DNA of 64,000 nt from Cellvibrio zantedeschiae (GTDB taxonomy: Bacteria > Pseudomonadota > Gammaproteobacteria > Pseudomonadales > Cellvibrionaceae): positions 310,001 through 374,000 of the forward strand of contig NZ_BMYZ01000001.1 of NCBI RefSeq assembly GCF_014652535.1. The letters are read 5' to 3'. A model generated the notes under the pieces. It saw only the letters and a program-made list of their open reading frames with translations, ran no database searches and was not told where the DNA came from. The position numbers and the translations under genes were made by a program. This document shows positions 29,284-47,511 of the stretch, piece after piece; position 1 is the stretch's first letter; the number at the start of each line of letters is the position of its first letter.

Positions 29284-29311
29284 TAGTACATCTAGCGCAT
29301 GATTCTGTGAG

Positions 29312-29342
29312 GCCCAGCAAGCTATTTGCTGGGCTTTTTTTT
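29312..29342 (+). terminator. Intrinsic terminator after pilA
   Basis: GCCCAGCAA (29312-29320) pairs perfectly with TTGCTGGGC (29326-29334) around a 5-base loop, followed by eight T. It should separate pilA transcription from the downstream glycan genes, apart from readthrough. Confidence 0.92.
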
Positions 29343-29364
29343 GTTTGTTATAAAGGTGGGGCAG

Positions 29365-31275: not shown

Positions 31276-31312
31276 ATCCACGTACTTACAATAAATGTGT
31301 AGGCCATCACAT

Positions 31313-32191: not shown

Positions 32192-32199
32192 CCTTCCAA

Positions 32200-33348
32200 A
32201 TGAAACCCAAAAAAATACTGCATGTAACTAGAAACTTTCCACCCTTGATTGGCGGTATGGAAAAGCTAAACTTTAATATATTTCATGCATTAAATTCACA
32301 TTTCGAAGTTTCCGTCTCTGGTCCTACGGGAAGCTCCAGCTTTCATAAAGTATCAAGCTTTGTTGAGTTTCCTTCTGCACCTTTATGGTTTTATTTAATT
32401 TCAAGCTTGCTTAAAACATTACGGTTAGCTAGAAGTGAGCGCCCTAATATTGTTTTCTGTGGTAGTGGCGCAGCTATATTGGCGGGATATTTTTCTGCCA
32501 AACTTACAGGTGCGAAATTAGTTTGCTATCTACATGGGCTTGATATAGTTGCTAAAAGTATTGTTTATCAATTGATTTTTATACCGCTTATAAAAAAATC
32601 CGATTTACTACTTGTGAATAGTCGACACACATGTAATTTAGCTTTGAGGGCAGGTTTTGATTCTGGGAGAATAAAAATCCTTTCTCCTGGAACATTTATA
32701 CCTGAACATACGGATAGTCTTCATTTAAAGCGAAGCTTTTGTAAGAAATATAAACTTCAGGATGTTCCATTTTTATTAATTGCGGGAAGAATAACAAAAC
32801 GTAAAGGTATTGAAGAGTTTATTGTTCATGTAATGCAAAAATTGGTATCACAACATCCAGAATTAACGTTAGTCGTTATTGGTGATGAAGCATTACAGGC
32901 AATAAAACAGCACGATGGAGTAAAAGAAAAAATCGTCCAGCGAGTCTATGCGTTGGGGCTGCAGGATAATGTCAGGTTTCTAGGTGGTGTTGATGATCAA
33001 ACATTATCAGCAGCATTTTTTAGTGCAAAAATGTTAGTTTTTCCTGTGCTTGATTTAGCTAATGATGTTGAGGGGTTTGGTATGGTAGCGATAGAAGCAG
33101 CTGCCCATGGCCTATGCTCTGTAGGCTTTAGTGTTGGTGGCGTGCCTGACGCTATATCAACCGAGAAATCTGGCTGGCTAGTGGAGCCGGGACATTATGA
33201 TGAAATGAGGGACGTTATTTTAGATAAGCTTAAAGTAAATTCATTAGATAAAATAACCAGTGAAACATGCATAGATTTTGCTCGTGAATTTGAGTGGAAG
33301 AAATTTAACGAGAAATTGTATGCTGTTTTAAACGAGGAGACTGTATGA
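32200..33348 (+). CDS. Family 4 glycosyltransferase
   Basis: GT-B fold enzyme of 382 residues. The N-terminal half has the FPPLIGGMEK acceptor-side glycine loop. The C-terminal half has LLIAGRITKRKGIEEFI and the nucleotide-sugar motif EGFGMVAIEAAAHG with its Glu pair. Probably a cytoplasmic retaining transferase building a lipid-linked glycan. Donor and acceptor cannot be told from sequence. It begins 8 bases after the GT2 gene and overlaps the methyltransferase by 4 bases. Confidence 0.85.
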   Translation: MKPKKILHVTRNFPPLIGGMEKLNFNIFHALNSHFEVSVSGPTGSSSFHKVSSFVEFPSAPLWFYLISSLLKTLRLARSERPNIVFCGSGAAILAGYFSAKLTGAKLVCYLHGLDIVAKSIVYQLIFIPLIKKSDLLLVNSRHTCNLALRAGFDSGRIKILSPGTFIPEHTDSLHLKRSFCKKYKLQDVPFLLIAGRITKRKGIEEFIVHVMQKLVSQHPELTLVVIGDEALQAIKQHDGVKEKIVQRVYALGLQDNVRFLGGVDDQTLSAAFFSAKMLVFPVLDLANDVEGFGMVAIEAAAHGLCSVGFSVGGVPDAISTEKSGWLVEPGHYDEMRDVILDKLKVNSLDKITSETCIDFAREFEWKKFNEKLYAVLNEETV

Positions 33349-34100
33349 CTCTAGAGATGAAAGAGCGACGCCCTCATGCGGTATTAAATCTTGAGACGCG
33401 TTATTTAAAAGCAAAAAAGATAGAGTTGTTGATATCGTCTAATAGATTGAAAGAGCCTATAAGACTGTTGGAAGTTGGAACCGGATCAGGAGGCATAGCT
33501 TATTATTTTTCCAGCTTGTCAGATATAGAATATGAAGTAACAGCTGTAGATGTCAAAGACAATCGTTTAACGGAAGAGGGATTTGAATTTCAATTGGTTG
33601 AAGGAGTTGAGCTTCCTTATGATAATGAGTCATTTGATGTTGTAATATCTAATCACGTTATTGAACACGTTGGCGATTTAACCTCTCAGCTTGAACATTT
33701 GAGTGAGTTGAATCGAGTCCTCACAAAAAGCGGCATTGGTTATTTGGCTGTACCTAATCGATGGATGTTGGTTGAGCCGCACTATAAATTAATTTTCCTA
33801 AGCTGGTTGCCAAAATTTTTGAGATCGCCTTACCTAAGGCTTTTTGGAAAAGGCCATTATTACGATTGCGAACCGCTTCAAAAACATGAAATTGAATCTA
33901 TGTTTAAGAAAACAAATTTTGAGTTTAAAAATGTATGTGTGAGGGCTTTGAAATTAACTTTTGATATTGAAATGCCTAATTCATTACCTGCTCGGGTTAT
34001 AAAATATATACCGACTTTTATGATCGAGCTATTTACCCCTCTTATTCCTACTCTTATTTACACGATTCGAAAATCAGAAGAAAAAAAAAGGCTTAATTAG
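33345..34100 (+). CDS. SAM-dependent methyltransferase (class I, type 11)
   Basis: Protein of 251 residues with SAM motif I LLEVGTGSGG near residue 40 and LPYDNESFDVVISNHVIEH as motifs II-III. The setting suggests methylation of a sugar or lipid-linked intermediate, but the substrate is unknown. A run of nine A lies just before the stop, so slippage there would alter only the tail. Its last 8 bases overlap the 3' end of the gene on the other strand, marking the junction of two oppositely oriented groups. Confidence 0.8.
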   Translation: MTLEMKERRPHAVLNLETRYLKAKKIELLISSNRLKEPIRLLEVGTGSGGIAYYFSSLSDIEYEVTAVDVKDNRLTEEGFEFQLVEGVELPYDNESFDVVISNHVIEHVGDLTSQLEHLSELNRVLTKSGIGYLAVPNRWMLVEPHYKLIFLSWLPKFLRSPYLRLFGKGHYYDCEPLQKHEIESMFKKTNFEFKNVCVRALKLTFDIEMPNSLPARVIKYIPTFMIELFTPLIPTLIYTIRKSEEKKRLN

Positions 34101-35208
34101 CTTGCTGGATTACGATTCTATAAGTTGTTTCTAATTTTTTGCTCTGAGTCGCCCAATCTTCTATCAATAAATCTGGGTAAGAAGGTGTTTCAAGTTGTTT
34201 CGTGACAGCTGATACTAAGCTGTTGCAATCATCCGGCATGTAGCATTCATTTCTCGTACTTGAAAACAATTCTTGCATGTCACCGATACTTGCAACAACC
34301 ATAGGTATTTTGCAGGCTGCCATCTCATAAGCTTTTTGCGGAAAACTCAGCTGCCCATATTTCGTGTCTCTCAAGTAAACAATTCCTACATCTAATGAGC
34401 AGAATAATTCAGCTACTTTTTCGTGCGTCAGTTTTCCCAAGTAAAGTATTCTATCGTGAATTGGAACAGGGCATGTTGAATCAAGACTCCCTGCTACTAC
34501 GCATATTAGATTAGGATTTGTCTCCACTAGAATATTGAACGCGTTATAAACCGTCTCAATGCCTTTTTCTTTACTTAAACCGCCGGCGGTACCAACAATC
34601 AATGCGTCCAGAGGAAGGTTTAATAACTTTCGATTTTCGATTTTATTGCGAGGATAAAAAATAGATTGATTGATAGTGCTTGGTAAAGAAATTACTTCAG
34701 TATCTAAGGGTGTAATAGTTTTAATGTGGCTGCTCAATGATTTGGATACACAACTAATTGCTGCAGACTTTCTTAGTGCTTTCTTATAAAGCATTTTTAC
34801 AAAAGGGATTTTGGCCAAACCAAAAGTTTCAAAATCATCGTATAGATCAGCCGCATAAGTACATCCCATTTTTTTTGCGACCCATTGACCCAGGATAACG
34901 TGTAAGCAATCCGATGCTCCTACAATAATATCGGGCTTAAATTGATAGGCAATTTTTAAAAGATCAAAAGGAAAGAGGAATAATGATTGCCGATATTTTC
35001 CCGCTGAAATACCTATCCAACGAAGGCTACCTGAATCCGTATGGTGAAATTCATCTTTAGATGTGCATTCGCGATAGCTTAAACATACACCTAAAACATG
35101 GTTGCCTAATTTTGCAAGTTGAAATGGTTGTTCATAAAGACGTGCGTAGCGATCTTCAATAACATCATGTCCCATGTATTGCCGTTTGCATAAATAAAGA
35201 ATGCGCAT
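34093..35208 (-). CDS. Family 4 glycosyltransferase
   Basis: GT-B glycosyltransferase of 371 residues. GTAGGLSKEKGIETVYNAF and the late YEMAACKIPMVVASIGDMQELF are the donor-site motifs. ATG at 35208 (MRILYLCKRQYMGHD) is preferred over an upstream start that would run into glf. It follows glf by one base, so it may use the sugar made by Glf, but galactofuranosyl activity is only a guess from position. Confidence 0.82.
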   Translation of the reverse strand: MRILYLCKRQYMGHDVIEDRYARLYEQPFQLAKLGNHVLGVCLSYRECTSKDEFHHTDSGSLRWIGISAGKYRQSLFLFPFDLLKIAYQFKPDIIVGASDCLHVILGQWVAKKMGCTYAADLYDDFETFGLAKIPFVKMLYKKALRKSAAISCVSKSLSSHIKTITPLDTEVISLPSTINQSIFYPRNKIENRKLLNLPLDALIVGTAGGLSKEKGIETVYNAFNILVETNPNLICVVAGSLDSTCPVPIHDRILYLGKLTHEKVAELFCSLDVGIVYLRDTKYGQLSFPQKAYEMAACKIPMVVASIGDMQELFSSTRNECYMPDDCNSLVSAVTKQLETPSYPDLLIEDWATQSKKLETTYRIVIQQAN

Positions 35209-35209
35209 A

Positions 35210-36328
35210 TTAATTTTTAAACCGATCAATTAGTTTTTCAGAGGCTGATAATGCAGCTCCTACAACTTGATCCATGTTGTAATAACGATACTGGGCTAAT
35301 CGGCCAACAAACGTTACATTATTTTCATTTTTTGCAAGAGTCTCGTATCGTTTAAAAATCGCCTCATTTGCATCATTAGGAATTGGGTAATAAGGATCGC
35401 CATCTGATTGCGGGTATTCTTTGACTGTGGATGAGCCCGAGTGTTGTTGCCCTGTTAAATGTTTAAATTCAGTAATGCGAGTATATTCATAATCATTAGG
35501 ATAATTTATTGTGCCGACAGATTGTAATTTGTCTGTATTAGTAAAGTGCTCATGTTCAAATCGCAAGGATCTATAAGGAAGCTTCCCAAAGCAATAATTA
35601 AAGTATTCATCGATTGGGCCAGTGTAAACAACGTGATGATCTGAATACGTAGATTTTACATCACTAAAACTTACACCTATTTTCAATTCAATGTTTGGAT
35701 GGCTTAACATAGATTCGAACATTTTCGAGTAGCCTCTCAAGGGCATTGCTTGATATTCGTCAGTAAAATAACGATCATCTGTATTAGTCCGTACGGGAAT
35801 GCGAGCAGCAACACCCGCTTTTAATTGTGAGGGATCCACTCCCCATTGCTTTTTTGTGTAATTTAGAAAAAATTTTTCATACAAGTCTATACCCACGCTG
35901 TTTAGGACAACATCTTCGCTGGTTCGTATTTTTTCGCGTGGTTCTCGCACTCTTTCAAGGTATTTAGCTGCTTCAATTTCGTTTAAATTCAAGTTATATA
36001 ATTGATTTAGAGTATCTCGATTGATAGGGAAGGGATACTGCTCTCCGTTTACAACACTAAGAACACGGTGTTCATATGGGCGCCATTCGGTAAAGTTCGA
36101 CAGATATTTAAATATACGCTCGCTATTGGTGTGAAAAATATGTGGGCCATAGTTATGAATTAATAAACCATTTTGGTCATAAGAATCATATGCATTGCCG
36201 CCTATATGATTGCGTTTGTCGATAATAATAACATTATGACCAGACGCCGCTAATTCGCGAGCAATAACACAGCCCGAAAAGCCTGAGCCAACAATGAGAA
36301 TATCTGTTGTTTTAATCTGGATGCTCAT
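35210..36328 (-). CDS. glf: UDP-galactopyranose mutase
   Basis: FAD enzyme of 372 residues that converts UDP-galactopyranose to UDP-galactofuranose in the cytoplasm. The N-terminal dinucleotide loop is ILIVGSGFSGCVIA; IGGNAYD, NYGPHIFHT and the YTKKQWG motif are characteristic. PLRGYSKMFESML and the late GRLAQYRYYNMDQVVGAAL complete the FAD site. Its presence predicts galactofuranose in the glycan made here. The start shares one base with the stop of the upstream GT2. Confidence 0.96.
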   Translation of the reverse strand: MSIQIKTTDILIVGSGFSGCVIARELAASGHNVIIIDKRNHIGGNAYDSYDQNGLLIHNYGPHIFHTNSERIFKYLSNFTEWRPYEHRVLSVVNGEQYPFPINRDTLNQLYNLNLNEIEAAKYLERVREPREKIRTSEDVVLNSVGIDLYEKFFLNYTKKQWGVDPSQLKAGVAARIPVRTNTDDRYFTDEYQAMPLRGYSKMFESMLSHPNIELKIGVSFSDVKSTYSDHHVVYTGPIDEYFNYCFGKLPYRSLRFEHEHFTNTDKLQSVGTINYPNDYEYTRITEFKHLTGQQHSGSSTVKEYPQSDGDPYYPIPNDANEAIFKRYETLAKNENNVTFVGRLAQYRYYNMDQVVGAALSASEKLIDRFKN

Positions 36329-37371
36329 TAGGCACTTAGCCCCATACGTCGTAATATTTTGAATGCTTCCGAATTATAGTTCAGCTTAAGGACTGAGAGC
36401 GCAAATACATCAAAATTCATCAAGCTACTCGGTTTTATCCACGTTAGTAGATGGGAGGAAAAATATTTTTTTCTCATCTCTCCTCCCAAAGGGGCTGCGC
36501 GAATGCATGCACGAATCCATTGGCTGGCGACAATCGAATTAAATTCTGATGATTTTTTTTCACACAATAAAAAAGTAAGCCACTCTTCAATTAGCTCTAA
36601 TTCTCTAAGAGTGCAAATGGACTGAGGTGCCCTAATTGTATTATGAACTAAAGCTTGCTGTTCAGTAGGAAAAACCCCAATACTTTGTAAAGCGTTCACT
36701 CGAATCTGTCTTGTGATTAATTCCATTCTTTCTTTTTTTGCTTGAGTTGCTTGGGATGAATGTCTTCGATAATTTAACAGGGGCTCCGGTATGTTGTTGA
36801 ATTTATATTTTTTAATTGCTCTAGAGAAAAAGTCATAATCTTCTGCTAAGTTGAACTCTTCTCTATAAGGAAAATCGTCAAACACCTCTCTTCTCGCCAT
36901 GATAGTTGGATGACAAATAGTGTTTTGAAAAAGAAGCGATGCTTCGAGTGCTTGGTGAGACGTTGGCCATCGGGTTATTCGAGGCGCTCCTTGGCCAAAC
37001 TCTTTAAACCAAGTCCCGCATAAGTCAACGTTATTTTCTGATAGAAATTTGACTTGCCTTTCCAGCCTTTGAGGGTGCGCTACGTCGTCTGCATCCATCC
37101 TTGCGATAAATTTTCCTTGAGCTTCAGCTATTGAACGATTCAATGAATAAACAATTCCGTTATTACACGGTTCGTTTATTATTTTGATGCTGGCGCTTTT
37201 CAGTGTGATGGTTTTTATTATTTTGAGGCTGTCGTCTTGTGATCCGTCGTTGAACACGAGTATTTCAAAATTATTGTAAGTTTGTTCAAGTATGCTATTA
37301 ATGGATTTAGCAATCCATTTTTCGGCATTGAAACAAGGGATAATCACTGAAATTAGGGGGGGGGTACGCAT
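36328..37371 (-). CDS. Family 2 glycosyltransferase with poly-C tract at its start
   Basis: Protein of 347 residues with an inverting GT-A domain at the N-terminus: ISVIIPCFNAEKWI, VFNDGSQDDS and the metal-binding ARMDADD, then LAEDYDFFSRA. The C-terminal ~120 residues are not assigned. Codons 3-6 lie in nine consecutive C (plus-strand G run 37356-37364). Gain or loss of one base would put nearly the whole protein out of frame, so expression may switch on and off. The printed sequence is in the on frame. Acceptor and donor are unknown. Confidence 0.88.
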   Translation of the reverse strand: MRTPPLISVIIPCFNAEKWIAKSINSILEQTYNNFEILVFNDGSQDDSLKIIKTITLKSASIKIINEPCNNGIVYSLNRSIAEAQGKFIARMDADDVAHPQRLERQVKFLSENNVDLCGTWFKEFGQGAPRITRWPTSHQALEASLLFQNTICHPTIMARREVFDDFPYREEFNLAEDYDFFSRAIKKYKFNNIPEPLLNYRRHSSQATQAKKERMELITRQIRVNALQSIGVFPTEQQALVHNTIRAPQSICTLRELELIEEWLTFLLCEKKSSEFNSIVASQWIRACIRAAPLGGEMRKKYFSSHLLTWIKPSSLMNFDVFALSVLKLNYNSEAFKILRRMGLSA

Positions 37372-37378
37372 TTTCGAG

Positions 37379-38338
37379 TTATTCGCTTAAGAGTTTTTTG
37401 AGATTTCGATCTATTTCATCCATTACTTGTTGATCTAGGGTTTGGTCAAACTTTCTGGCAAATAATTTTTCTGTTGATGCGCTGCTTATTTCAGCTATAT
37501 CTTTTATCAAGAACGTTTTCGGTGATAAATCATTAGCTTTGTCCCAGCTTAGATAAACTATTTTGGGCTTTATAGCGGTTGTGTTATTTTCACATATGTT
37601 CACTAAGGCTGTTTGAAAAAACAATTCATCAGGAATTAAGGCATCTTTAAAAAAATTGCTGAAATTTGGATTTTTTTCAACAAAAGAAATGATCTTTTTC
37701 AGCGATATAGTGCGTAGTGCCCACCATTGAGAGCCGCCAAAAAAATCAACTTTTTTTAAGAGTTTCTTCTTTATGAAAATCTTTGATAATAATAATAAGT
37801 AAATTATTTTTTTATCTGACAAGGCTTTCCTGACTAATTTTAGCACGTTTTTAAGAATGCCTCTCGGCCTAAATGTAAACAACGTCGGGAGATAAATGAA
37901 GTCATTTCGTAGGCCCGAGAAATTTATTTTATAGGCTTGTATTCTATATATATATTTTTGGGGCCACGCCTCTTTAATTGGCTTGCAGTCTATAAAGTCA
38001 TAATTTTCATTTTTTCGGAAAAAAGTTTTTATTTCGTCATTGTTGCGAATAGGGTAGTCCTGCCCGCTGATTAATATAACATGGCCATGTCTGCTGTGTT
38101 TTATGACTTCTCTTATGCAACTTAATGTAGCTTCTACAATTGAAAAGTCCCCCCAGCAACAGGGGGTTCTATTTTTTACAAAAAAGACCCTTTCACTTTC
38201 CTCCAAAAAATCTGCTATTGCTGAATTCAAATCAACGTGAACATATATGTACACGTCGTCCGAGACCAATTTTCGAATCAGTCTTTTGACTTGATCTGGA
38301 TTTTTATGAGCAAGTATTATGTATATTATTTCATGCAT
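37379..38338 (-). CDS. GT14-like core-2/I-branching type glycosyltransferase
   Basis: Protein of about 319 residues with motifs of the branching beta-1,6-GlcNAc transferase/xylosyltransferase family: YIILAHKNPDQV at the N-terminus, YVHVDLNS, CCWGDFSIVEA, ILISGQDYPIRNNDEI, GSQWWALR and PDELFFQTAL. Bacterial members occur in surface-glycan loci. The start is uncertain; ATG at 38338 fits the domain, while a TTG at 38377 would add 13 basic residues. It lies 7 bases upstream of the GT2 with the poly-C tract. Confidence 0.82.
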   Translation of the reverse strand: MHEIIYIILAHKNPDQVKRLIRKLVSDDVYIYVHVDLNSAIADFLEESERVFFVKNRTPCCWGDFSIVEATLSCIREVIKHSRHGHVILISGQDYPIRNNDEIKTFFRKNENYDFIDCKPIKEAWPQKYIYRIQAYKINFSGLRNDFIYLPTLFTFRPRGILKNVLKLVRKALSDKKIIYLLLLSKIFIKKKLLKKVDFFGGSQWWALRTISLKKIISFVEKNPNFSNFFKDALIPDELFFQTALVNICENNTTAIKPKIVYLSWDKANDLSPKTFLIKDIAEISSASTEKLFARKFDQTLDQQVMDEIDRNLKKLLSE

Positions 38339-38400
38339 ATTTTTCGTTGCAGTACTTTTGGGGCGAAGCTTTTTCAAAAAATTGCTTTCAAAACGAGACC

Positions 38401-39780
38401 TTATGGCCTGAAAAAAATTGTCCTAACGTAGTCCTGATAAGTAAGTGCCAGTTGTTTAGCCGCTTCATAGGGCCATTTCCAATTATTATACAGTAATTGA
38501 ACAATACCTTGAGTGAGAATTAGAAACCCTAAATTTGGGCTGGTTGCTTGCGTGGCTATAAGAATGCTTGCAGCTAATATGGTAGTGCCAGATATTAATG
38601 AGGATGCAAGGAAAGGGGTTGTATTGAGAGTGGTTAGATATGTAGCTGCCAGTGAATGATGTAGCTCCAAAAGCATAATCACCGAAAGCGCAACAAGCCA
38701 ATTTATGGGGATAAGATGCGCGTTGCTTTTGAGCAAACTCAATAGCACATCTCCAAACGCTACTATGCACGTTGCGCCTGCCGCGAATACTGTCAAAGAT
38801 AATATTTGCGATGAGATATAAAGTTCTTTTATATTTTGCTGCCGTCCTTGGGTTTGTAGGCGGTTAATGTGTGGCAATTGTAGTGTAAATATCATGGTTG
38901 TTAGCGCACTTATAAGTCCGAGAACCTGAAGGGTTAAACCATAAGCTGCTGTTATTTGAAGACCCATTGTGGCGCTGACGACAAAAAAATTCCCTCTTAG
39001 TATCAAGTAACTTCCTAGCTGAGCAAATCCTAATTTTTTGGAGGAGTGCCATAAAATCATAGTGTACTCAGGTACTTTAAAGAGATTTCTTTTTGCAGAA
39101 CGAGTGGCGTTATAATTTTTTGAATTAAAAAAGTGCGCGTATAAACACCGTGAAACCAAGCAGGAGAATAAGCTCGCGATTGCTAGCCCGTTTAGCCCTA
39201 GGCCATACTGTAGAAGTGGAATTGCTACAATAATGGAGGTTAATCTGCTTGCAATTATAATTTTATTTGCTTTAGATTGTTCCCCTCTGCCAGTGAGTAA
39301 CCCATTGTAGTAACCAAAGTACAGGTTAATAGAAATGCTTAATGCATATACGCACCATGATTGAAGTGTTTTGAGATCATCAATGCCCGAGTTTGCGTGG
39401 CTTATGAAGACATACCCTACGATCAATAGTATTGCAGAAGCAATTATAGCGATAATCCGATATATATATTTTGATGCTGCTATAAAGTCATGAAGTAGAT
39501 TCACGTCAATTGTTTCAGTGCTTTTTCTGGGGACTCCTTCAATTAATATCTCTTTAGCACCTGCGTAAATATAAGCAGCTTGCCGAGCAATTGTGGGCTG
39601 AAAACCAAATTCGGCTAATTGAGCCAATCCCCCAATAGTTAAAAATATGTACCAAAGGCCAATCTCTCCTTCGCTCATATATTTTAAAACGAAAGGTAAT
39701 AGTATTAGGCTCAAACCAAAGTTGGAGAAGTGCGCCATCCCACCCCAAAAAATCTCTTTTTTTGATATTTTAGCGTTCAT
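38401..39780 (-). CDS. wzx: Wzx-like polysaccharide flippase (MOP superfamily)
   Basis: Protein of 459 residues with about twelve hydrophobic segments and few charges between them, as in O-antigen and capsule flippases. IGLWYIFLTIGGLAQLAEFG at the second and third helices is a common pattern. It would flip an undecaprenyl-linked oligosaccharide to the periplasm. It overlaps the sugar reductase gene upstream by 4 bases. A flippase implies a lipid-linked repeat made by the surrounding transferases. Sequence is too variable to name the substrate. Confidence 0.82.
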   Translation of the reverse strand: MNAKISKKEIFWGGMAHFSNFGLSLILLPFVLKYMSEGEIGLWYIFLTIGGLAQLAEFGFQPTIARQAAYIYAGAKEILIEGVPRKSTETIDVNLLHDFIAASKYIYRIIAIIASAILLIVGYVFISHANSGIDDLKTLQSWCVYALSISINLYFGYYNGLLTGRGEQSKANKIIIASRLTSIIVAIPLLQYGLGLNGLAIASLFSCLVSRCLYAHFFNSKNYNATRSAKRNLFKVPEYTMILWHSSKKLGFAQLGSYLILRGNFFVVSATMGLQITAAYGLTLQVLGLISALTTMIFTLQLPHINRLQTQGRQQNIKELYISSQILSLTVFAAGATCIVAFGDVLLSLLKSNAHLIPINWLVALSVIMLLELHHSLAATYLTTLNTTPFLASSLISGTTILAASILIATQATSPNLGFLILTQGIVQLLYNNWKWPYEAAKQLALTYQDYVRTIFFRP

Positions 39781-40703
39781 TTTGCTGTCGTTGATTTCTC
39801 GATTCGTGCCTCATCGGTACTCGACGTCACCAATTTTCTTAGCCCCTCCTCAATGCTTACTTTGGGCTTCCAGTTCGGAAGTCTAATAAAATCTTTCCAG
39901 GTATACATTACCTCTCGATCCCTGTAATCGCGTGCACCCCATTTAACCTTTAGCTTTTGTGGGGATATTGAATTTAGAATATCAACAAGTTTCTTTAGTG
40001 TTATAGGCTTTTCTGAAGATATTCCATAGGTTAAATGGCTACTGTTTGGCGACTTTAAAATCAATTCGATCGCAACCAGAAAGGCATCTACAACGTCATC
40101 AACGTATACGAGATCAATTTCCTGCTCTCCTGGTGACATTTCAATTTGCAATGATTGCTTTGATGATTCAACTAGCATTGAAACAAGTTTTTTTCTCTTG
40201 TCATATAGGCCATATGTGTCAAAAATTCGCAAAGTGATTACATTGATACTTTGACTTTTAACATAAAACTCCAATAACTTTTCAAAGGCCTCTTTGGTGG
40301 CTGCGTATAAGCAGGTGGGATTGTATTTTTCATTATTAAAATTTTGCCAAGAGGTGCCAGTATTTATTATTTTCTTGCAGCCGCAGCGAACAATGGCATC
40401 GGTTATTATTGTTGGATATGTGATGTTGGAGTATAGCAAGTTTGTAACATCTTCTTTTTTGTGCTGTGTTATGTACAATGAGGCCAAATGTATAAAAATA
40501 TCGGGAACGTTTTTCTTTAGGAACTCATCTAGCGCGTCTTCATTGCCGTCAAAAAAAAATATATTTTCCTTAGAAATCTTTTCTATTTCTTCGTCTAAAC
40601 GAGATGTTCGAGTAATTAAAAATATTTGATTTCCGTTATCCAACAATTTTGCCACGAGGTTTGACCCTATAAACCCTGTTGCTCCAGATATTAGATATCT
40701 CAT
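39777..40703 (-). CDS. NAD(P)-dependent sugar reductase of the RfbJ/AscF kind (extended SDR)
   Basis: Protein of 308 residues. The Rossmann loop is SGATGFIGSNLV and the active-site Tyr-Lys is in CLYAATKEAFEKL. The C-terminal pattern with GARDYRDREVMYTW and NWKPKVSIEEGL resembles CDP-abequose and CDP-paratose synthases as I recall them. Beside ddhABCD and an RmlC-type epimerase, the best fit is the 4-keto reductase that finishes a CDP-3,6-dideoxyhexose. Abequose or paratose synthase are alternatives if the epimerase acts elsewhere. Confidence 0.78.
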   Translation of the reverse strand: MRYLISGATGFIGSNLVAKLLDNGNQIFLITRTSRLDEEIEKISKENIFFFDGNEDALDEFLKKNVPDIFIHLASLYITQHKKEDVTNLLYSNITYPTIITDAIVRCGCKKIINTGTSWQNFNNEKYNPTCLYAATKEAFEKLLEFYVKSQSINVITLRIFDTYGLYDKRKKLVSMLVESSKQSLQIEMSPGEQEIDLVYVDDVVDAFLVAIELILKSPNSSHLTYGISSEKPITLKKLVDILNSISPQKLKVKWGARDYRDREVMYTWKDFIRLPNWKPKVSIEEGLRKLVTSSTDEARIEKSTTAK

Positions 40704-40712
40704 AGGATGACC

Positions 40713-41252
40713 TCAGAAAGGTGAATCAAATTCAGCGAGGGGTGCGAAGGACATATCCCGGTCAGAAACTGTCGGGTTTTCGATTGGCCACTTATATGCT
40801 AGTGATGACCATAATATACCTGTATCCAGTGACGCATTGTGGCTGCTGGTCACACAATAAATTAATGTGGAGTTATCTTCTTGTGATAAGAAGCCATGGG
40901 CCATGCCTCTGGGTATGTAAATAGCTTGAGGGACTTTTTCGGAAAGCTGAAATGCCTGACATTTGCCGTAGCTCTTTGAGCTCTTTCTGAGATCCACAAC
41001 TACGTCAAGGACGTGACCGCTTGCGCAATGGACCAATTTTTCGTGATCCGCCGGTGGCAACTGGAAATGCATGCCTCTAACAACCCCTTTGTTTGATGAG
41101 GTATAGTAAATTTCCTGAAAGTTGGTCGCTAGATTGTGTTTTGCGAAAAAGTTGCTTTCAAAAATTTTTGTAAAGTAACCTCTGTTGTCATTATGCTTGG
41201 TAAAATTAATAATGAGACAGTTTTCTATTTCTGTTTTTATTATTTCAATCAT
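40713..41252 (-). CDS. RmlC-type NDP-sugar epimerase, candidate AscE
   Basis: Cupin protein of 179 residues of the dTDP-4-dehydrorhamnose 3,5-epimerase family: DNRGYFTKIF at the N-terminus, VVRGMHFQLPPADHEKLV with the catalytic His, VVDLRKSSKSYGK, and IPRGMAHGF. No rmlA, rmlB or rmlD accompany it. It sits with a CDP-dideoxyhexose set, so a role as the C-5 epimerase of the ascarylose pathway is the simplest reading. It lies 9 bases before the reductase gene and overlaps the GT2 upstream by 4 bases. Confidence 0.82.
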   Translation of the reverse strand: MIEIIKTEIENCLIINFTKHNDNRGYFTKIFESNFFAKHNLATNFQEIYYTSSNKGVVRGMHFQLPPADHEKLVHCASGHVLDVVVDLRKSSKSYGKCQAFQLSEKVPQAIYIPRGMAHGFLSQEDNSTLIYCVTSSHNASLDTGILWSSLAYKWPIENPTVSDRDMSFAPLAEFDSPF

Positions 41253-42358
41253 GATAGTGATGAGTCCTGATTGGAGATGATATTAATTTTCAAAGCAGGT
41301 TCTATAGGGCGCCAGAGAAGCATCCATAATATCGCAATTATCGGGAATGCGTTATTGTTGAAAAATGGTTTTACAGTTGAAATGTTCAGCGTTGCCAGCG
41401 ATTTTTCTGGGTTGAATTCATGATTAATTTTTGTGTATGCGACGTGTGCGTTAAGTCTTGATTGATATTGGGCTATTTTTTTTAGAATCTCCCGATGAAG
41501 ACCTGATGTGCACAGCTTTTTAATTATGTTCATTTTCATAATGTAATCGTTACGTAGAAAGGCTTCGAGTGTCTCTACTCTCAAGCTTTCGTTTTCTTCT
41601 ATCCGGTACGATGCCAATACTTTATTGAGTCTCTTTACTTTAATTCCTCCAAATATAGCTCTAACGATGAAGTCGTAATCGGCGGTGGGCCATAAGTTTT
41701 CGTTGAACCCACCTAAATTAACAGCAATTTTTTTTGGAATAAATGCGCCCAAGGTCCCTGGGAGCGGATTGCAATACAGTACGCGGCTTTGTCGGATTGT
41801 TACGATAGGGCGTAAGTAGTTCTCGACAGAATAGGGTAGGAGGAATTTTCTAACTGTTCGGATCAGATTTTTATCCGCGCTGGGATTGTATCCCCTGCCA
41901 AATTTTCTCGTTAGACAATATAGAATTGTGTCTTCATTTTTGGATTTCCACATTTCTTGTATAAAATCGGGAGCTAACAAATCATCGTCATTTAAAATTA
42001 CCAGCCAAGGGGAATTGCATAGCATTATGCATCTGTTCCAGTTGCCGAACATTCCAATGTTTTTTTTGTTTCTGTATAGTTTTATTGAGGCCGGCAAAAG
42101 ATCTTTTATCAGAGCCTCTATCTCTTCGTGCACGTCTGTATCCGTGCTGTTGTCAACGACGATAACTTCAATGTTTAAATTTGTTTTTTGATTGAGTGCA
42201 GATGATATCGCTTCTTTAAGTAGTTTCGCTCTATGATAAGTGGGAATCATGATTGAAACATCTGGTGCGGATTCAATTTTGTCACCCAGAATTAATTCTG
42301 CGTCTGCATCCTTATGCAGCAGAAAGTTATTATCTGTGTAGACCGTACTTTCATTCAT
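41249..42358 (-). CDS. Family 2 glycosyltransferase
   Basis: Protein of 369 residues. After about 30 leading residues, the GT-A domain shows VSIMIPTYHRAKLL, VIVVDNSTDTDV, NWNRCIMLCNSPWLVILNDD and a PTADYDFIVRA acidic site. It lies between ddhC and the epimerase, so it is a candidate for transferring the dideoxyhexose made by its neighbours. That is inference from position only. Confidence 0.82.
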   Translation of the reverse strand: MNESTVYTDNNFLLHKDADAELILGDKIESAPDVSIMIPTYHRAKLLKEAISSALNQKTNLNIEVIVVDNSTDTDVHEEIEALIKDLLPASIKLYRNKKNIGMFGNWNRCIMLCNSPWLVILNDDDLLAPDFIQEMWKSKNEDTILYCLTRKFGRGYNPSADKNLIRTVRKFLLPYSVENYLRPIVTIRQSRVLYCNPLPGTLGAFIPKKIAVNLGGFNENLWPTADYDFIVRAIFGGIKVKRLNKVLASYRIEENESLRVETLEAFLRNDYIMKMNIIKKLCTSGLHREILKKIAQYQSRLNAHVAYTKINHEFNPEKSLATLNISTVKPFFNNNAFPIIAILWMLLWRPIEPALKINIISNQDSSLS

Positions 42359-42377
42359 AATTGATCTACACCTTGGC

Positions 42378-43694
42378 TTAAAAATTTAAACCAAAAAATT
42401 CTTCCAGCTTGTTTGCGATAAAATCAAAGTGTTCGAAATTCAGTGCGGGATAAATTCCCAGCCAGAGCGTATTGTTCATTGTCAAATCGGTGTTGGTCAA
42501 ATCACCGACTACCCGATATTCTACCCCTTCAAAATACGGCTGCCTCGTTAAATTTCCAGCAAACAGTAATCGGCTACCTATTTTGTATTGATCTAAAAAT
42601 TTCACAAGATCTACACGACGTGCACCGACGCTTTCCTTAAGCGTAATCGGAAAACCGAACCATGACGGCTCGCTGTCAAGTGTCGGCTGGGCTATATCTA
42701 TGTGGTCAACTAAATTACCCAGTCTCGCTTTCAAAAGCTCGAAGTTACGCTTTCTTGCGTCAATGAGTTCTTGTGCGCGTTCCAGTTGAGCCAAACCACA
42801 AGCAGCTTGCATGTCGGTAATCTTTAGGTTGTAACCAATATGTGCGTACACATATTTATGGTCATATCCTGCGGGCAGCGTGCCAAAGCATTGTTCAAAG
42901 CGCTTGCCACAAGTGTTGTCACAACCTGGTGCGCAGTAACAATCTCTACCCCAATCTCTGAATGACTCGGCAATCATTTTCAGTTGTGAGTTATTAGTGA
43001 ATACCGCCCCACCTTCACCCATAGTGATGTGATGAGCGGGATAAAAGCTTAGCGTAGCTATATCCCCAAAAGTTCCCACCATTTGACCGTTATATTTTGC
43101 TCCTAACGCATCGCAGCAATCTTCGACGAGCCATAAATTATATTTTTCGCAGATTTCCTTGACCTTCTTGATATTAAATGGGTTTCCAAGCGTGTGGGCA
43201 AGCATGATGGCTTTGGTTTTTGCGGTAATAGCATTTTCGATCAAATCGGCATTAATATTGTGCGTCGCTAAATCTATATCCACAAATACAGGCACAGCGC
43301 CAAACTGAACTATTGGGTTTACCGTTGTCGGAAATCCCGCAGCTACTCCAATAACCTCATCACCTTTTTGTATGGCACGGGCTCCAAGCTTGGGCGATGT
43401 GAGGGTGTTAAAGGCAACTAAGTTAGCAGAGGATCCTGAATTTACTGTGATGAGATGTTTTACTCCAATAAACTCAGCCAATTTTTTTTCAAACTCTAGG
43501 TTAAAGCGACCTGTGGTTAACCAGCAATCCAAAGATGCTTCAACCATTAATTCCATTTCGCGCGCACCAACTACTTTACCTGACGGGGGAATTACGGTTT
43601 CACCAGCAATAAAATTGTTTACTGGTGCGGCGGCCGCAAACTTTTTTACAAGTTTAACTATCTCTTGACGTATTTCATTTTGTGTCATGGTCAT
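42378..43694 (-). CDS. ddhC: DdhC/RfbH, CDP-4-keto-6-deoxyglucose 3-dehydrase (E1)
   Basis: PMP-dependent [2Fe-2S] enzyme of 438 residues that removes the C-3 hydroxyl of CDP-4-keto-6-deoxyglucose together with the reductase DdhD. The aspartate aminotransferase fold is present, but the site that normally holds the PLP lysine reads AHHITMGEGG, with His221-His222, the hallmark of this dehydrase. Cysteines for the iron-sulfur cluster lie in EDCCDALG and CYCAPGC. The C-terminus EEFFGLNF is typical. It directly follows ddhB. Confidence 0.96.
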   Translation of the reverse strand: MTMTQNEIRQEIVKLVKKFAAAAPVNNFIAGETVIPPSGKVVGAREMELMVEASLDCWLTTGRFNLEFEKKLAEFIGVKHLITVNSGSSANLVAFNTLTSPKLGARAIQKGDEVIGVAAGFPTTVNPIVQFGAVPVFVDIDLATHNINADLIENAITAKTKAIMLAHTLGNPFNIKKVKEICEKYNLWLVEDCCDALGAKYNGQMVGTFGDIATLSFYPAHHITMGEGGAVFTNNSQLKMIAESFRDWGRDCYCAPGCDNTCGKRFEQCFGTLPAGYDHKYVYAHIGYNLKITDMQAACGLAQLERAQELIDARKRNFELLKARLGNLVDHIDIAQPTLDSEPSWFGFPITLKESVGARRVDLVKFLDQYKIGSRLLFAGNLTRQPYFEGVEYRVVGDLTNTDLTMNNTLWLGIYPALNFEHFDFIANKLEEFFGLNF

Positions 43695-43709
43695 TCCTGT
43701 AGGGCAAGG

Positions 43710-44786
43710 CTAGATTGATTCTGTTGAAGACATAAAGTTTCTGATTTCGACTAAGGAGTAGGTGTCCATAGGCTCATTTGCCAGCCATGCCTGTTGCCAA
43801 TCAATGATTTTTTTCAGAGTCTCTTCGAGGCTCCATATTGGTTGCCAGTTTAGTCTCGCTTTTGCTTTTGATATGTCCAATTTCAACGACTGGGCTTCAT
43901 GTGGCTGAACTCCTGTGTCAAGTTTCCATGAAGCCCCGTCACTCCAGTGTGCAACCATTTTTTCTACAATCCACTCCACAGGCTTTACGTCTTTGTCATC
44001 TGGGCCGAAATTCCATCCTTCTGCAAAGGTAGAGCCGTATTCCGTCAATAGTTGGGCTAAGACTAAATACCCGCTGAGCGGTTCTAGTACATGTTGCCAT
44101 GGTCGTGTAGATTTTGGATTTCGAACTATAACTGGTATCTTCTGCTCGAATGCTCTCAAGATATCCGGAATAAGACGATCAGCAGACCAGTCGCCGCCGC
44201 CAATGACATTTCCCGCGCGAGCAGAGGCTATTGCGGGTCCTTTAGCATCGTTAAAAAATGAACTTCTATAGGCAGAGGTTATTAACTCTGAGCAAGCTTT
44301 GCTATTGCTGTATGGGTCGTGTCCTCCCATAGGTTCGTTTTCACGATAACCCCAAATCCATTCTCTATTCTCATAACACTTGTCTGAGGTTACGTTCACA
44401 ATGGCTTTTAAGTTGGAGCATCGGCGAGCGGCCTCAAAGACATTTAAGGTACCCATAATATTGGTTGAGTAGGTCTCCAATGGGTCCTGATAGGACAACC
44501 TTACGAGTGGTTGTGCAGCTAAGTGAAATATGATGTCCGGATCAAAATCTCTCATGATCTTCTCAAGAGTATTTAAGTCCCGGATGTCACCAAGGTTGGA
44601 GTTGATGTAGTTAGAAACTTTTGCTTCGTTATACATGCATAAGTCTGTGGGAGCTAACGCATAGCCTTTCACCTCAGCCCCTAAAGCATTCAACCAAAGC
44701 GTTAACCAGCTCCCCTTAAAACCTGTATGGCCTGTCAGGAAAACTTTTTTTCCGTTCCAAAACTTAACATTAATTAGGTTTTTCAA
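43710..44786 (-). CDS. ddhB: DdhB/RfbG, CDP-glucose 4,6-dehydratase
   Basis: Extended SDR of 358 residues that converts CDP-glucose to CDP-4-keto-6-deoxyglucose. The NAD loop is FLTGHTGFKGSWL; VNVTSDKCYENREW gives the catalytic Thr-Asp-Lys region, YSNSKACSEL the Tyr-x3-Lys, and RPWQHVLEPLSGY is a sugar-dehydratase motif. The start appears to be TTG at 44786, since no ATG precedes the Rossmann fold in frame; GGAAAT lies upstream. It starts 6 bases after the ddhA stop. Confidence 0.95.
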   Translation of the reverse strand: MKNLINVKFWNGKKVFLTGHTGFKGSWLTLWLNALGAEVKGYALAPTDLCMYNEAKVSNYINSNLGDIRDLNTLEKIMRDFDPDIIFHLAAQPLVRLSYQDPLETYSTNIMGTLNVFEAARRCSNLKAIVNVTSDKCYENREWIWGYRENEPMGGHDPYSNSKACSELITSAYRSSFFNDAKGPAIASARAGNVIGGGDWSADRLIPDILRAFEQKIPVIVRNPKSTRPWQHVLEPLSGYLVLAQLLTEYGSTFAEGWNFGPDDKDVKPVEWIVEKMVAHWSDGASWKLDTGVQPHEAQSLKLDISKAKARLNWQPIWSLEETLKKIIDWQQAWLANEPMDTYSLVEIRNFMSSTESI

Positions 44787-44792
44787 ATTACA

Positions 44793-45566
44793 TTATTTCC
44801 ATTGTTTCCATGGAGCTGAATTGCTACTCCACAGCTCTTCAAGATAAATTTTGTCTCTCAGTGTATCCATAGGTTGCCAGAATCCGTCGTGCTCATAAGC
44901 CATCAGTTCACCACTTTCAGCAAGTTTTATTAGTGGCTGTTGTTCCCAGATAGTCGCATCGTTATCTATTAGATCTAGCACCTTGGGTGATAAAACAAAA
45001 AAGCCTCCATTAATCATTGCCCCATCACCTTTAGGTTTTTCCTTAAAGTTTTGCACTTGTCCGTTTTTTAAATCGAGCGCACCGAATCTTCCTATTGGGT
45101 AGGTGGCGGTGACGGTCGCTAATTTTCCATGAGATTTGTGATATGAAATTGTTTCGCTAATATTAACGTCGCTCACACCGTCACCATACGTCAAGCAAAA
45201 GGCTTCGTCATTTTCAATATAATCCCTTACCCGCTTCAATCGCCCACCTGTCATCGATTGAGCACCGGTGTCTACCAGTGTGACTTTCCACGGCTCGGCG
45301 CGATGATTGTGGATGTGCATTTGATTTGACGACAAATCAAAGGTGATATCTGACATATGTAAGAAATAATTTGCGAAATACTCTTTTATTACGTACCCCT
45401 TGTAGCCGCAACAAATAATAAATTCATTTACTCCGTGAAAAGAGTACATTTTTAATATGTGCCACAAAATTGGCATTCCACCGATTTCTACCATTGGTTT
45501 CGGCCTGACAGATGTTTCTTCGCTAAGTCGAGTACCAAGTCCTCCTGCCAAAATAACCGCTTTCAT
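44793..45566 (-). CDS. ddhA: DdhA/RfbF, glucose-1-phosphate cytidylyltransferase
   Basis: Nucleotidyltransferase of 257 residues that makes CDP-glucose from CTP and glucose 1-phosphate. The N-terminal [15 protein letters not shown] is the nucleotide loop; [10 protein letters not shown] and [11 protein letters not shown] bind sugar phosphate and metal. [19 protein letters not shown] is typical. This is the entry step of the CDP-3,6-dideoxyhexose pathway. It lies 12 bases after ddhD. Confidence 0.96.
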
Positions 45567-45578
45567 ATGTGTATCCTG

Positions 45579-46577
45579 TTATGAGCTGTAAAACGCATCT
45601 GAAAAAAAACAATCTTCCTTTAAACCATTGAGTGTAAGTAGTAATTTAGCGCTATCTACCATTATCGGTGAGCCGCTTGCATATACCACCGCATCCTCTA
45701 AATTTGAATTGATTTGAAGTGCTGCATCTTGAACGTATCCATGCATTCCTTTCCAATCGCTATTTTTTCGGCTTAATATTAGATTGAACGCAATCTCTAT
45801 CTTTCTAAAATTAGGTTCCCAATAAAATTCTTCGGGTGTCCTGTTGCCCCAATATATTTCAATTATTTTATCTTTTACCAGCATTGGATTTTGTTCAAAT
45901 TGCTCAACCATGCTTTTGACCGGAGCGATGCCTGTACCTGTCGCTAGAAAAATGATGCGACGCTCTTTTTTTGAACGAAAAAAAAATGTGCCGTGCGGTC
46001 CATTAAAGCGTAAGAGATCAGAAACTTGTGCTGCATTAAACCAGTACTGGCTCATGATGCCATTCGCGATTTTACGAACTTGTAATTCGATTTTTCCTTC
46101 TGAATTGAAATTATTGGCGATTGAGTAGCTGCGATGAGCTCCTGTGGGGCCGATAATGTTAATATATTGTCCAGCTAGGCAACTGAAGGAATTATTTGGC
46201 GGTAAACGTAAAACTATGCGAGCAATATCTTGAGCCACAAATTCTATCGAATCAATTCGACTTGGCAGGGTTAATATTTGAATTTTGCCTAGATCACCCA
46301 GATCGCTTATATTTAAACTCAAATCACTTTTGGCTGTCCTACAGCATGTTAGTATTATTCCGTTACTTATTTCTTCCTCTGATAAAGACGTTTCTGGCCG
46401 GATTAAGCAGGTGTCGCCATTTATTACTTTGGCTTTGCAAACCCCACACTTTCCTGTACGGCAACTATGCTCCAAAATCAGGCCGGCGGTTTTCGCTGAG
46501 TCTAAAATTGATGCGCCCTCGGTACTTGAAAAACAATTTGAATTGCTTAAAGTTACTTTGGCAACACTAGGTGGCAT
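45579..46577 (-). CDS. ddhD: DdhD/AscD, CDP-6-deoxy-delta-3,4-glucoseen reductase (E3)
   Basis: Flavoprotein of about 332 residues that passes electrons from NADH to DdhC. An N-terminal plant-type [2Fe-2S] ferredoxin domain (CRTGKCGVC plus a later Cys) is followed by an FAD domain (HRSYSIANN) and an NAD domain (FLATGTGIAPVKSM). ATG at 46577 gives the expected length; a TTG at 46655 would add 26 atypical residues and overlap nadC. The order ddhD-ddhA-ddhB-ddhC matches Yersinia O-antigen loci. It is 67 bases downstream of nadC, with no terminator seen between. Confidence 0.94.
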   Translation of the reverse strand: MPPSVAKVTLSNSNCFSSTEGASILDSAKTAGLILEHSCRTGKCGVCKAKVINGDTCLIRPETSLSEEEISNGIILTCCRTAKSDLSLNISDLGDLGKIQILTLPSRIDSIEFVAQDIARIVLRLPPNNSFSCLAGQYINIIGPTGAHRSYSIANNFNSEGKIELQVRKIANGIMSQYWFNAAQVSDLLRFNGPHGTFFFRSKKERRIIFLATGTGIAPVKSMVEQFEQNPMLVKDKIIEIYWGNRTPEEFYWEPNFRKIEIAFNLILSRKNSDWKGMHGYVQDAALQINSNLEDAVVYASGSPIMVDSAKLLLTLNGLKEDCFFSDAFYSS

Positions 46578-46644
46578 ATTGCTCTCAATTATATTGAATG
46601 GAACTTTAGTTTTATGTGAATAATTATTTTGGAAAGAGAAATAA

Positions 46645-47511
<867 letters not shown>

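What the first reader, a model, noticed from the sequence alone, without database searches (positions are those of the whole stretch)
39777..46577. Complete gene set for a CDP-3,6-dideoxyhexose, most likely CDP-L-ascarylose
ddhA, ddhB, ddhC and ddhD are contiguous in the order ddhD-ddhA-ddhB-ddhC known from Yersinia O-antigen loci. Established chemistry takes them to CDP-4-keto-3,6-dideoxyglucose. An RmlC-type epimerase with no rmlA/B/D nearby and an RfbJ-like reductase follow. In the ascarylose pathway those are the steps AscE (C-5 epimerase) and AscF (reductase). Ascarylose is otherwise known mainly from a few Yersinia serotypes and from nematode ascarosides, so a pseudomonad-like bacterium would be a new source.
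Basis: partly seen in the sequence, partly recalled or inferred. Interest (0 to 1): 0.72.

Follow-up and report, generated by a model that had tools for sequence, protein, structure and literature searches.

The report
Likely ascarylose sugar gene cluster
A bacterium from the wider Pseudomonas order carries an intact gene set that most likely makes the rare sugar ascarylose for its cell surface, and relatives of the same set turn up in many other bacteria, so the pathway looks more widespread than its few known sources suggest.

Summary
ddhD-ddhA-ddhB-ddhC, an RmlC-like epimerase (EPI) and an SDR reductase (RED) are intact and operon-like, with a glycosyltransferase between ddhC and EPI. DdhA, B and C pass curated cut-offs.

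EPI is not a rhamnose RmlC. The genome has a separate rml set with its own RmlC, and EPI falls outside the RmlC clade at 100/99, with the CDP-sugar epimerase WbcA. Of 11 other genomes found by EPI searches to hold a CDP-type EPI, 10 also hold a 3-dehydrase; the exception is WbcA itself, cited as 3''-specific. WbcA has Cys at the catalytic Tyr; window EPI keeps Tyr. Once C3 is deoxygenated, C5 is the centre left to epimerise. RED groups with WbcB, away from the Prt-like reductases, which favours C4 inversion. C5 plus C4 inversion gives CDP-L-ascarylose.

"New source" is overstated: EPI with a 3-dehydrase occurs in 20 other genomes read here, two of them with a ColD-like dehydrase. The cluster sits in a variable pilA-nadC site.

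The parts
45579..46577 (-). ddhD (E3-type reductase: 2Fe-2S ferredoxin domain + FAD/NAD domains), ATG start at 46577
   Evidence: Pfam Fer2, FAD_binding_6, NAD_binding_1; C-x4-C-x2-C motif
44793..45566 (-). ddhA, glucose-1-phosphate cytidylyltransferase
   Evidence: TIGR02623 479 bits, cut-off 300; best PDB 1tzf
43710..44786 (-). ddhB, CDP-glucose 4,6-dehydratase
   Evidence: TIGR02622 495 bits, cut-off 278; best PDB 1rkx, E 1e-154
42378..43694 (-). ddhC, CDP-4-keto-6-deoxyglucose 3-dehydrase (E1), His in place of the PLP Lys, four Fe-S Cys
   Evidence: NF011936 719 bits, cut-off 423; best PDB 3bcx/3bb8; H221, C194, C252, C254, C262 line up with E1 220, 193, 251, 253, 261 by the alignment (E1 roles recalled)
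41249..42358 (-). family-2 glycosyltransferase between ddhC and the epimerase
   Evidence: Pfam PF00535
40713..41252 (-). EPI: RmlC-fold epimerase of the CDP-sugar clade, proposed CDP-4-keto-3,6-dideoxyglucose 5-epimerase
   Evidence: PF00908; best PDB 5buv, listed as WbcA in PMC9095892; clade 100/99 apart from RmlC, Tyr132 kept
39777..40703 (-). RED: SDR 4-ketoreductase of the WbcB set, proposed to reduce C4 with inversion
   Evidence: PF01370; set with WbcB 99/96
38401..39780 (-). wzx-like O-unit flippase
   Evidence: NF041503 422 bits, cut-off 300; no Pfam hit
37379..38377 (-). Branch-family (core-2/I-branching) glycosyltransferase
   Evidence: PF02485
36328..37371 (-). family-2 glycosyltransferase
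   Evidence: PF00535
35210..36328 (-). glf, UDP-galactopyranose mutase
   Evidence: TIGR00031 387 bits, cut-off 304
34093..35229 (-). family-4 type glycosyltransferase
   Evidence: PF13692/PF00534

Best explanation
The cluster makes CDP-L-ascarylose (3,6-dideoxy-L-arabino-hexose) and builds it into a surface glycan exported by the adjacent Wzx-type flippase. DdhA makes CDP-glucose, and DdhB turns it into CDP-4-keto-6-deoxyglucose. DdhC (PMP and 2Fe-2S) with DdhD removes the C3 hydroxyl. EPI then flips C5 of the 4-ketone, using His62 as base and Tyr132 as acid. RED reduces C4 with inversion. The steps as far as CDP-4-keto-3,6-dideoxyglucose follow from established enzyme families. C5 epimerisation, C4 inversion and export are inferred.
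For: ddhA, B and C pass curated cut-offs. DdhC's closest solved relatives are the 3-dehydrases 3bcx/3bb8, E 3e-209. The EPI clade is apart from 17 RmlC-type proteins at 100/99, with Glu47 in 22 of 22 against Gln in 17 of 17, and Tyr/Phe49 in 22 of 22 against Asn in 17 of 17; six further RmlC-type proteins checked afterwards have Gln and Asn, 6 of 6. The genome's own RmlC sits in its own rml set. In the order search, 4 of 293 genomes hold EPI at E <= 1e-40 and all 4 are among the 10 of 293 with ddhC over cut-off; leaving the window genome out it is 3 of 3 among 9 of 292. Across the EPI searches, 11 other genomes hold a CDP-type EPI and 10 of them hold a 3-dehydrase. The catalytic Tyr is kept in all those 10; WbcA, the one without a dehydrase, has Cys. 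RED lies in a 99/96 set with WbcB, across a 100/98 branch from the Prt-like clade. By Fischer projection (recalled), ascarylose is D-gluco with C4 and C5 inverted, and 6-deoxy-D-gulose is D-gluco with C3 and C4 inverted.
Against: AscE and AscF of Y. pseudotuberculosis O5a were not available, so direct homology is untested. [quoted passage not shown] EPI has His where most have Tyr at position 138 (7 of 22 do, WbcA among them). EPI-carrying loci use two reductase classes: 5 of the 22 reductases labelled so in the tree lie on the Prt side, and it is not known which class AscF belongs to. The C4 inference rests on WbcB making 6-deoxy-D-gulose, which is recalled. The Tyr/Cys contrast on the side without a dehydrase rests on one enzyme. 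L127, a divergent EPI with ddhC, has Ser at the Tyr position.
Confidence: 0.7

Rival explanations
1. Two sugars from one cluster: DdhCD plus RED make CDP-abequose, while EPI acts as a C3-epimerase on CDP-4-keto-6-deoxyglucose and RED reduces it to 6-deoxy-D-gulose, as WbcA/WbcB are thought to do (recalled).
For: EPI and RED are 45% and 40% identical to WbcA and WbcB; WbcA is cited as 3''-specific.
Against: 10 of 11 other genomes found by EPI searches to hold a CDP-type EPI also hold a 3-dehydrase, which a C3-epimerase would not need. WbcA's nearest relative in the set (58% identical, L185) occurs with ddhDABC and has Tyr where WbcA has Cys.
Confidence: 0.13
2. C5 is epimerised but RED keeps the D-gluco configuration at C4, giving CDP-3,6-dideoxy-L-lyxo-hexose, a C4 epimer of ascarylose that I do not recall being described.
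For: The reduction face cannot be read from sequence alone; two reductase classes pair with EPI.
Against: Window RED is in the WbcB set, not on the Prt side.
Confidence: 0.12
3. EPI is a second rhamnose RmlC and the ddh set makes abequose or paratose with RED.
For: RmlC fold family, 148 bits to TIGR01221.
Against: Under the rmlC cut-off, outside the RmlC clade at 100/99, and the genome has its own RmlC in an rml set. In L185 a true RmlC and an EPI sit in the same cluster.
Confidence: 0.03

Closest known systems
CDP-ascarylose (asc) pathway of Yersinia pseudotuberculosis O5a
   Same: Cytidylyltransferase, 4,6-dehydratase, Fe-S/PMP 3-dehydrase and E3 reductase, then an epimerase and a reductase (enzyme list recalled); order ddhDABC then the sugar-specific genes (general pattern in passages of PMC3715488).
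   Different: Different host group; a glycosyltransferase stands between ddhC and the epimerase; AscE/AscF identity untested.
WbcA/WbcB of Yersinia enterocolitica (WbcA = PDB 5buv), read here in L137 (the name WbcB is recalled)
   Same: Same epimerase clade (45% identity) and same reductase set (40%), directly after ddhA-ddhB.
   Different: That cluster shows no ddhC or ddhD in the 19.5 kb read, and its genome has no ddhC over cut-off; WbcA has Cys at the catalytic Tyr position.
RmlC/RmlD of the dTDP-rhamnose pathway
   Same: EPI has the RmlC fold family and its conserved His, Lys and Asp; RED is an SDR.
   Different: Two columns differ (Glu47 and Tyr/Phe49 against Gln and Asn); own rml set present.
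ddhDABC + prt/tyv (paratose, tyvelose) and ddhDABC + TPP-enzyme/reductase (yersiniose type) clusters
   Same: Shared ddh front end (the sugar-specific genes named by eye).
   Different: No Tyv-type epimerase or TPP enzyme seen among the 16 cluster proteins scanned; RED is apart from the Prt-like clade.

Membership tests
CDP-ascarylose pathway | Glucose-1-phosphate cytidylyltransferase and CDP-glucose 4,6-dehydratase | tested here: met
   TIGR02623 and TIGR02622 over cut-off; 1tzf and 1rkx best PDB
CDP-ascarylose pathway | E1 3-dehydrase with His for Lys and a 2Fe-2S cluster, plus E3 reductase | tested here: met
   NF011936 over cut-off, 3bcx/3bb8, His and Cys in place; ddhD domains by Pfam
CDP-ascarylose pathway | 5-epimerase homologous to AscE | not testable with these tools
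   No AscE sequence was found: 1 of 25 Yersinia genomes had an EPI match, and that one is WbcA without ddhC
CDP-ascarylose pathway | Reductase homologous to AscF giving the L-arabino product | tested here: inconclusive
   RED in the WbcB set; AscF sequence not held
CDP-ascarylose pathway | Ascarylose present in the glycan | not testable with these tools
   Needs chemistry
dTDP-rhamnose RmlC | Over the TIGR01221 cut-off and inside the RmlC clade | tested here: not met
   148 against 155.75 bits; outside at 100/99. The TIGR01221 cut-off alone is not decisive: L185's EPI scores 166.8
WbcA/WbcB type | ddhA-ddhB without a 3-dehydrase | tested here: not met
   Intact ddhC and ddhD in the window
WbcA/WbcB type | Same epimerase and reductase clades | tested here: met
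Paratose/tyvelose or yersiniose cluster | Prt/Tyv or a TPP enzyme with YerF-like reductase | tested here: not met
   No TPP enzyme and no second SDR epimerase among the 16 cluster proteins scanned, 15 by Pfam and glf by NCBIfam; RED not in the Prt-like clade nor with the YerF-type rows

The most novel reading that the evidence does not exclude
A CDP-specific epimerase clade (Glu47, Tyr/Phe49, catalytic Tyr kept) marks a CDP-3,6-dideoxy-L-hexose pathway that is spread through Pseudomonadota and Bacteroidota. It comes in at least two chemistries for the deoxygenation (a DdhC-type enzyme, or a ColD-like dehydrase as in L182 and L184) and with two reductase classes, one of which may give the undescribed C4 epimer. 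In the window organism it has been moved into the pilA-nadC hot spot, so the sugar may decorate type IV pili instead of, or as well as, LPS.
Probability: 0.3. Interest if true: 0.65.

Novelty: new member of a known kind. Interest (0 to 1): 0.42.

Why it matters
3,6-Dideoxyhexoses are major O-antigen determinants, and in the papers seen here ascarylose is recorded for bacteria only in Y. pseudotuberculosis. A sequence rule that separates CDP-sugar epimerases from rhamnose RmlC matters because name-giving models can confuse them: the EPI of L185 scores over the rmlC cut-off. It also makes testable which residue sets C3 against C5 specificity, a point that the paper seen here says structure cannot predict.

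Tried and rejected
Rhamnose RmlC: rejected by clade, residues and the separate rml set. Colitose by a CDP route: rejected on stereochemistry, since C2 would have to be inverted (recalled Fischer projections). Yersiniose, paratose and tyvelose: their sugar-specific genes were not seen among the 16 cluster proteins scanned.

I first took the two Yersinia reductases L140/L142 for abequose synthases. I dropped that as a firm claim: a paper passage describes O:2a as abe followed by a degraded tyv, which L186 does not show.

I first counted L183 (G618) as an EPI locus without ddhC. Reading the rest of its contig found ddhA-ddhB-ddhC about 14 kb away.

Rows dropped or not used. The epimerase trees use rows that I chose: L125 (partial) and L131-L133 and L136 (second copies of proteins already in) were left out. 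L127 was left out of the second epimerase tree as a long branch (it is and in the residue counts). The reductase rows were picked by best BLAST hit to window RED over 45 bits and under 420 residues, with three YerF-type rows added; nine of them (own RmlD, the three YerF-type, L047, L056, L071, L103, L125) were left out of the second reductase tree. Six class-search hits that passed E <= 1e-50 at 174-181 bits (L174-L179) are not in the trees. I checked them at the end: all 6 have Gln47 and Asn49, 5 of 6 stand next to an rmlD-like gene, and none has ddhA-C in its 1.5 kb flanks beyond weak hits of 32-34%. Weaker hits outside the E-value limits were not looked at.

DdhD in the relatives: it was not seen in L182 and L184 (ColD-like), but neither was it in L181 or L241 nor convincingly on G618's contig, which have DdhC, so its absence does not by itself mark the ColD form. 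In L241 the C-x-C-x7-C cluster motif is there but the DCCD string is not, so its fourth ligand is unconfirmed.

No structure prediction or fold search was run: the fold is not in doubt and would not tell C3 from C5. The hypergeometric value includes the window genome itself; I use the counts without it. Literature: the AscE/AscF search listed Aeromonas secretion proteins and unrelated ASCE acronyms. No paper on this cluster or on WbcA-like epimerases beside ddhC appeared in the listings. No paper was read whole: passages or the outline only.
Full report
WHAT IS THERE. On the minus strand, in order, lie nadC (46645-47502), ddhD (45579-46577), ddhA, ddhB, ddhC, a family-2 glycosyltransferase, EPI, RED, a Wzx-like flippase, a Branch-family glycosyltransferase, another family-2 glycosyltransferase, glf and a family-4 type glycosyltransferase. 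From ddhD to wzx the gaps between genes run from -4 to 19 bases, so they read as one operon. DdhA, DdhB and DdhC pass their curated NCBIfam cut-offs by wide margins. Their best solved relatives are 1tzf, 1rkx and 3bcx/3bb8; 3bcx and 3bb8 are named as CDP-sugar 3-dehydrases there. DdhC has His at the PLP-lysine place, and Cys194, 252, 254 and 262. Through the alignment these fall on E1 positions 220, 193, 251, 253 and 261, which I recall as the E1 active-site His and cluster ligands. DdhD has the ferredoxin, FAD and NAD domains but no equivalog model names it. This is more than chance; it is a complete and intact front half of the CDP-3,6-dideoxyhexose pathway.

THE EPIMERASE IS NOT THE RHAMNOSE ENZYME. 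The genome (4.27 Mb, 12 contigs) has two PF00908 proteins. The other one scores 237 bits and sits between rmlA-like and rmlD-like genes, with rmlB next, on contig C3 (rmlA and rmlD named by eye). EPI scores under the rmlC equivalog cut-off, and its best solved relative is 5buv, which PMC9095892 lists as WbcA. In a tree of 38 proteins, 21 CDP-type epimerases and 17 RmlC-type proteins, grouped by me beforehand, split at 100/99 (an earlier 30-row tree that includes L127 gave 96/85). Two columns separate the groups completely. Window position 47 is Glu in 22 of 22 CDP-type and Gln in 17 of 17 RmlC-type proteins. Position 49 is Tyr or Phe in 22 of 22 against Asn in 17 of 17. His62, Lys72 and Asp166 are kept in all 39. 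Six more RmlC-type proteins examined afterwards (L174-L179) have Gln and Asn, 6 of 6. One cluster, L185 in G755, holds a true RmlC and an EPI, so they are not interchangeable.

WHY C5. WbcA is listed as a CDP-6-deoxy-D-xylo-4-hexulose epimerase and cited as 3''-specific in PMC9095892 (passages). The L137 protein contains the 5buv segment letter for letter. Its cluster reads ddhA-ddhB-wbcA-wbcB with no ddhC or ddhD in the 19.5 kb read, and its genome, G304, has no ddhC over cut-off. I recall that this O antigen contains 6-deoxy-D-gulose. The window differs by having ddhC and ddhD, which make C3 achiral. To ask whether EPI belongs with deoxygenation, I searched with EPI and not with ddhC. Order: EPI at E <= 1e-40 in 4 of 293 genomes (window genome included), all four among the 10 of 293 with ddhC over cut-off; seven more genomes match at 1e-30 to 6e-33 and are RmlC-type in the tree. 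Yersinia genus: 1 of 25, the WbcA genome. Class: 11 of 369 at E <= 1e-50, of which 5 score 230 bits or more and 6 score 174-181 and are RmlC-type. Enteric family: 1 of 99. Phylum: 4 of 398 at E <= 1e-58, two of them already counted. Without the window that is 11 genomes with a CDP-type EPI. Of these, 8 hold a DdhC with the C-x-C-x7-C motif (G065, G224, G266, G567, G618, G755, G897, G1026), 2 hold a ColD-like dehydrase with His for Lys and without the cluster cysteines (G604, G615), and 1 (WbcA) holds neither. In G618 ddhABC lie about 14 kb from EPI. The group draws overlap, so these are counts, not independent trials. At the acid position (Tyr132 here, Tyr134 in CBU1838) all 10 with a dehydrase have Tyr and WbcA has Cys. 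The contrast is sharpest in the pair WbcA and L185, 58% identical. The 10 epimerases that I found by a ddhC search are biased towards having ddhC and are not counted in this; 9 of them have Tyr and L127 has Ser. A caution: PMC9095892 says that the catalytic residues cannot predict specificity and that 3''-specific enzymes have shown a full set, which for WbcA does not agree with the Cys seen here.

WHY C4 INVERSION. In the reductase tree of 42 rows, window RED is in a 17-row set (99/96): window RED, WbcB, 14 other reductases from loci with an EPI, and L066, which has no EPI in the stretch held. A 17-row Prt-like clade lies across a 100/98 branch: 16 reductases from loci with no EPI in the stretch held, L139 and L141 next to Tyv-like epimerases among them, and the second reductase of L240. 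On that side, too, are five reductases that pair with EPI: L045, L046, L240, L063, L092. So two reductase classes pair with this epimerase. By Fischer projection (recalled), 6-deoxy-D-gulose has C3 and C4 inverted from D-glucose, abequose has C4, and ascarylose has C4 and C5; a WbcB-like reductase acting on the C5-flipped ketone would give ascarylose. Colitose is excluded because C2 would have to change. The reduction face remains the weakest step.

HOW WIDE. Of these 80, 10 have a CDP-type EPI in the stretch held: L057 Pseudomonas marginalis, L063 Pseudomonas sp. 8AS, L080, L082 Duganella sacchari, L085, L092 Flavobacteriales, L101 Bacteroidia, L112 Pseudoduganella violacea, L123 Massilia and the divergent L127 Roseateles. 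Some contigs end early, so this is a lower bound. Together with the 10 genomes above, 20 other genomes hold EPI with a 3-dehydrase; no contig length is shared between the two lists. Many of the other ddhC loci lead to a TPP-enzyme plus reductase (yersiniose type) or to a transketolase-like pair (named by eye). In the passages seen, ascarylose in bacteria is recorded for Y. pseudotuberculosis O5a (PMC8533242; also PMC6436433 and PMC3715488). Genes for 3,6-dideoxyhexoses outside enterics are reported in Piscirickettsia salmonis, whose authors say these sugars were known only from a few enterobacteria (PMC10689435), and in Vibrio anguillarum O1 (PMC10059132). I recall a Vibrio cholerae O3 report of ascarylose that a search did not turn up.

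WHERE IT SITS. To the left, on the plus strand, are pilA (28837-29283), a 649-residue TPR membrane protein and a polyprenyl-phosphate-hexose-synthase-like glycosyltransferase; pilB lies beyond, then pilC and pilD (pilC and pilD named by eye). Ten relatives of the same family were read from nadC towards pilA. pilA-nadC is about 2.6-4 kb in four (G808, G804, G792, G782), about 16 kb in two (G090, G249), and pilA was not found in the stretch read in four (G800, G796, G811, G788). The stretch 29326-46577 is 38.9% G+C against 44.2% and 46.2% on its sides. This fits cargo exchanged at a pilin-linked site. Whether the sugar goes on LPS, on another polysaccharide or on pili is open; no Wzy was identified among the proteins scanned.

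TAXON. L043 (G071, same order as the window) and L103 (Zooshikella harenae) lie on contigs of the same length and have identical reductases, so the window's order includes Zooshikella; I recall this as Pseudomonadales in GTDB.

VERDICT. A real, complete, probably functional cluster for a CDP-3,6-dideoxy-L-hexose, most likely ascarylose. It is a new member of a known kind. The end product rests on inference, and the module is not confined to this organism.

Noticed in passing
window 28837-32191 (+): pilA directly followed by a 649-aa membrane protein with C-terminal TPRs and a DD motif early on (GT-C look, by eye) and a polyprenyl-P-hexose-synthase-like GT. G249 has 26% and 62% identical counterparts in the same place: a likely pilin glycosylation pair.
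   Followed up: partly
window 28393-46645: The pilA-nadC interval varies from 2.6 to about 16 kb in the relatives in which both ends were found (6 of 10 read): a cargo hot spot.
   Followed up: partly
L182 7324-8523, L184 10072-11283: CDP-glucose genes with a ColD-like 3-dehydrase (His for Lys, no Fe-S cysteines) in the place of DdhC, next to EPI and RED.
   Followed up: partly
L045, L046, L240, L063, L092: EPI paired with a second class of reductase on the Prt side; might give the C4 epimer of ascarylose.
   Followed up: partly
L185 (G755 C50 2000-21000): Enteric O-antigen-like cluster with rmlB-D-A-C, ddhDABC, EPI, RED, wzx; gnd-like gene at the end (named by eye). A possible enteric ascarylose cluster.
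   Followed up: partly
L047, L052, L071, L073 and others: Many ddhC loci lead to a transketolase-like gene pair (clusters c3 and c4, named by eye), suggesting a branched-chain sugar made by two-carbon transfer.
   Followed up: no
L241 10519-12159, L181 7466-9118: DdhC open frames of about 550 aa, longer than the usual 437; in L181 the N-terminal extension looks like a separate protein run in frame (by eye).
   Followed up: no
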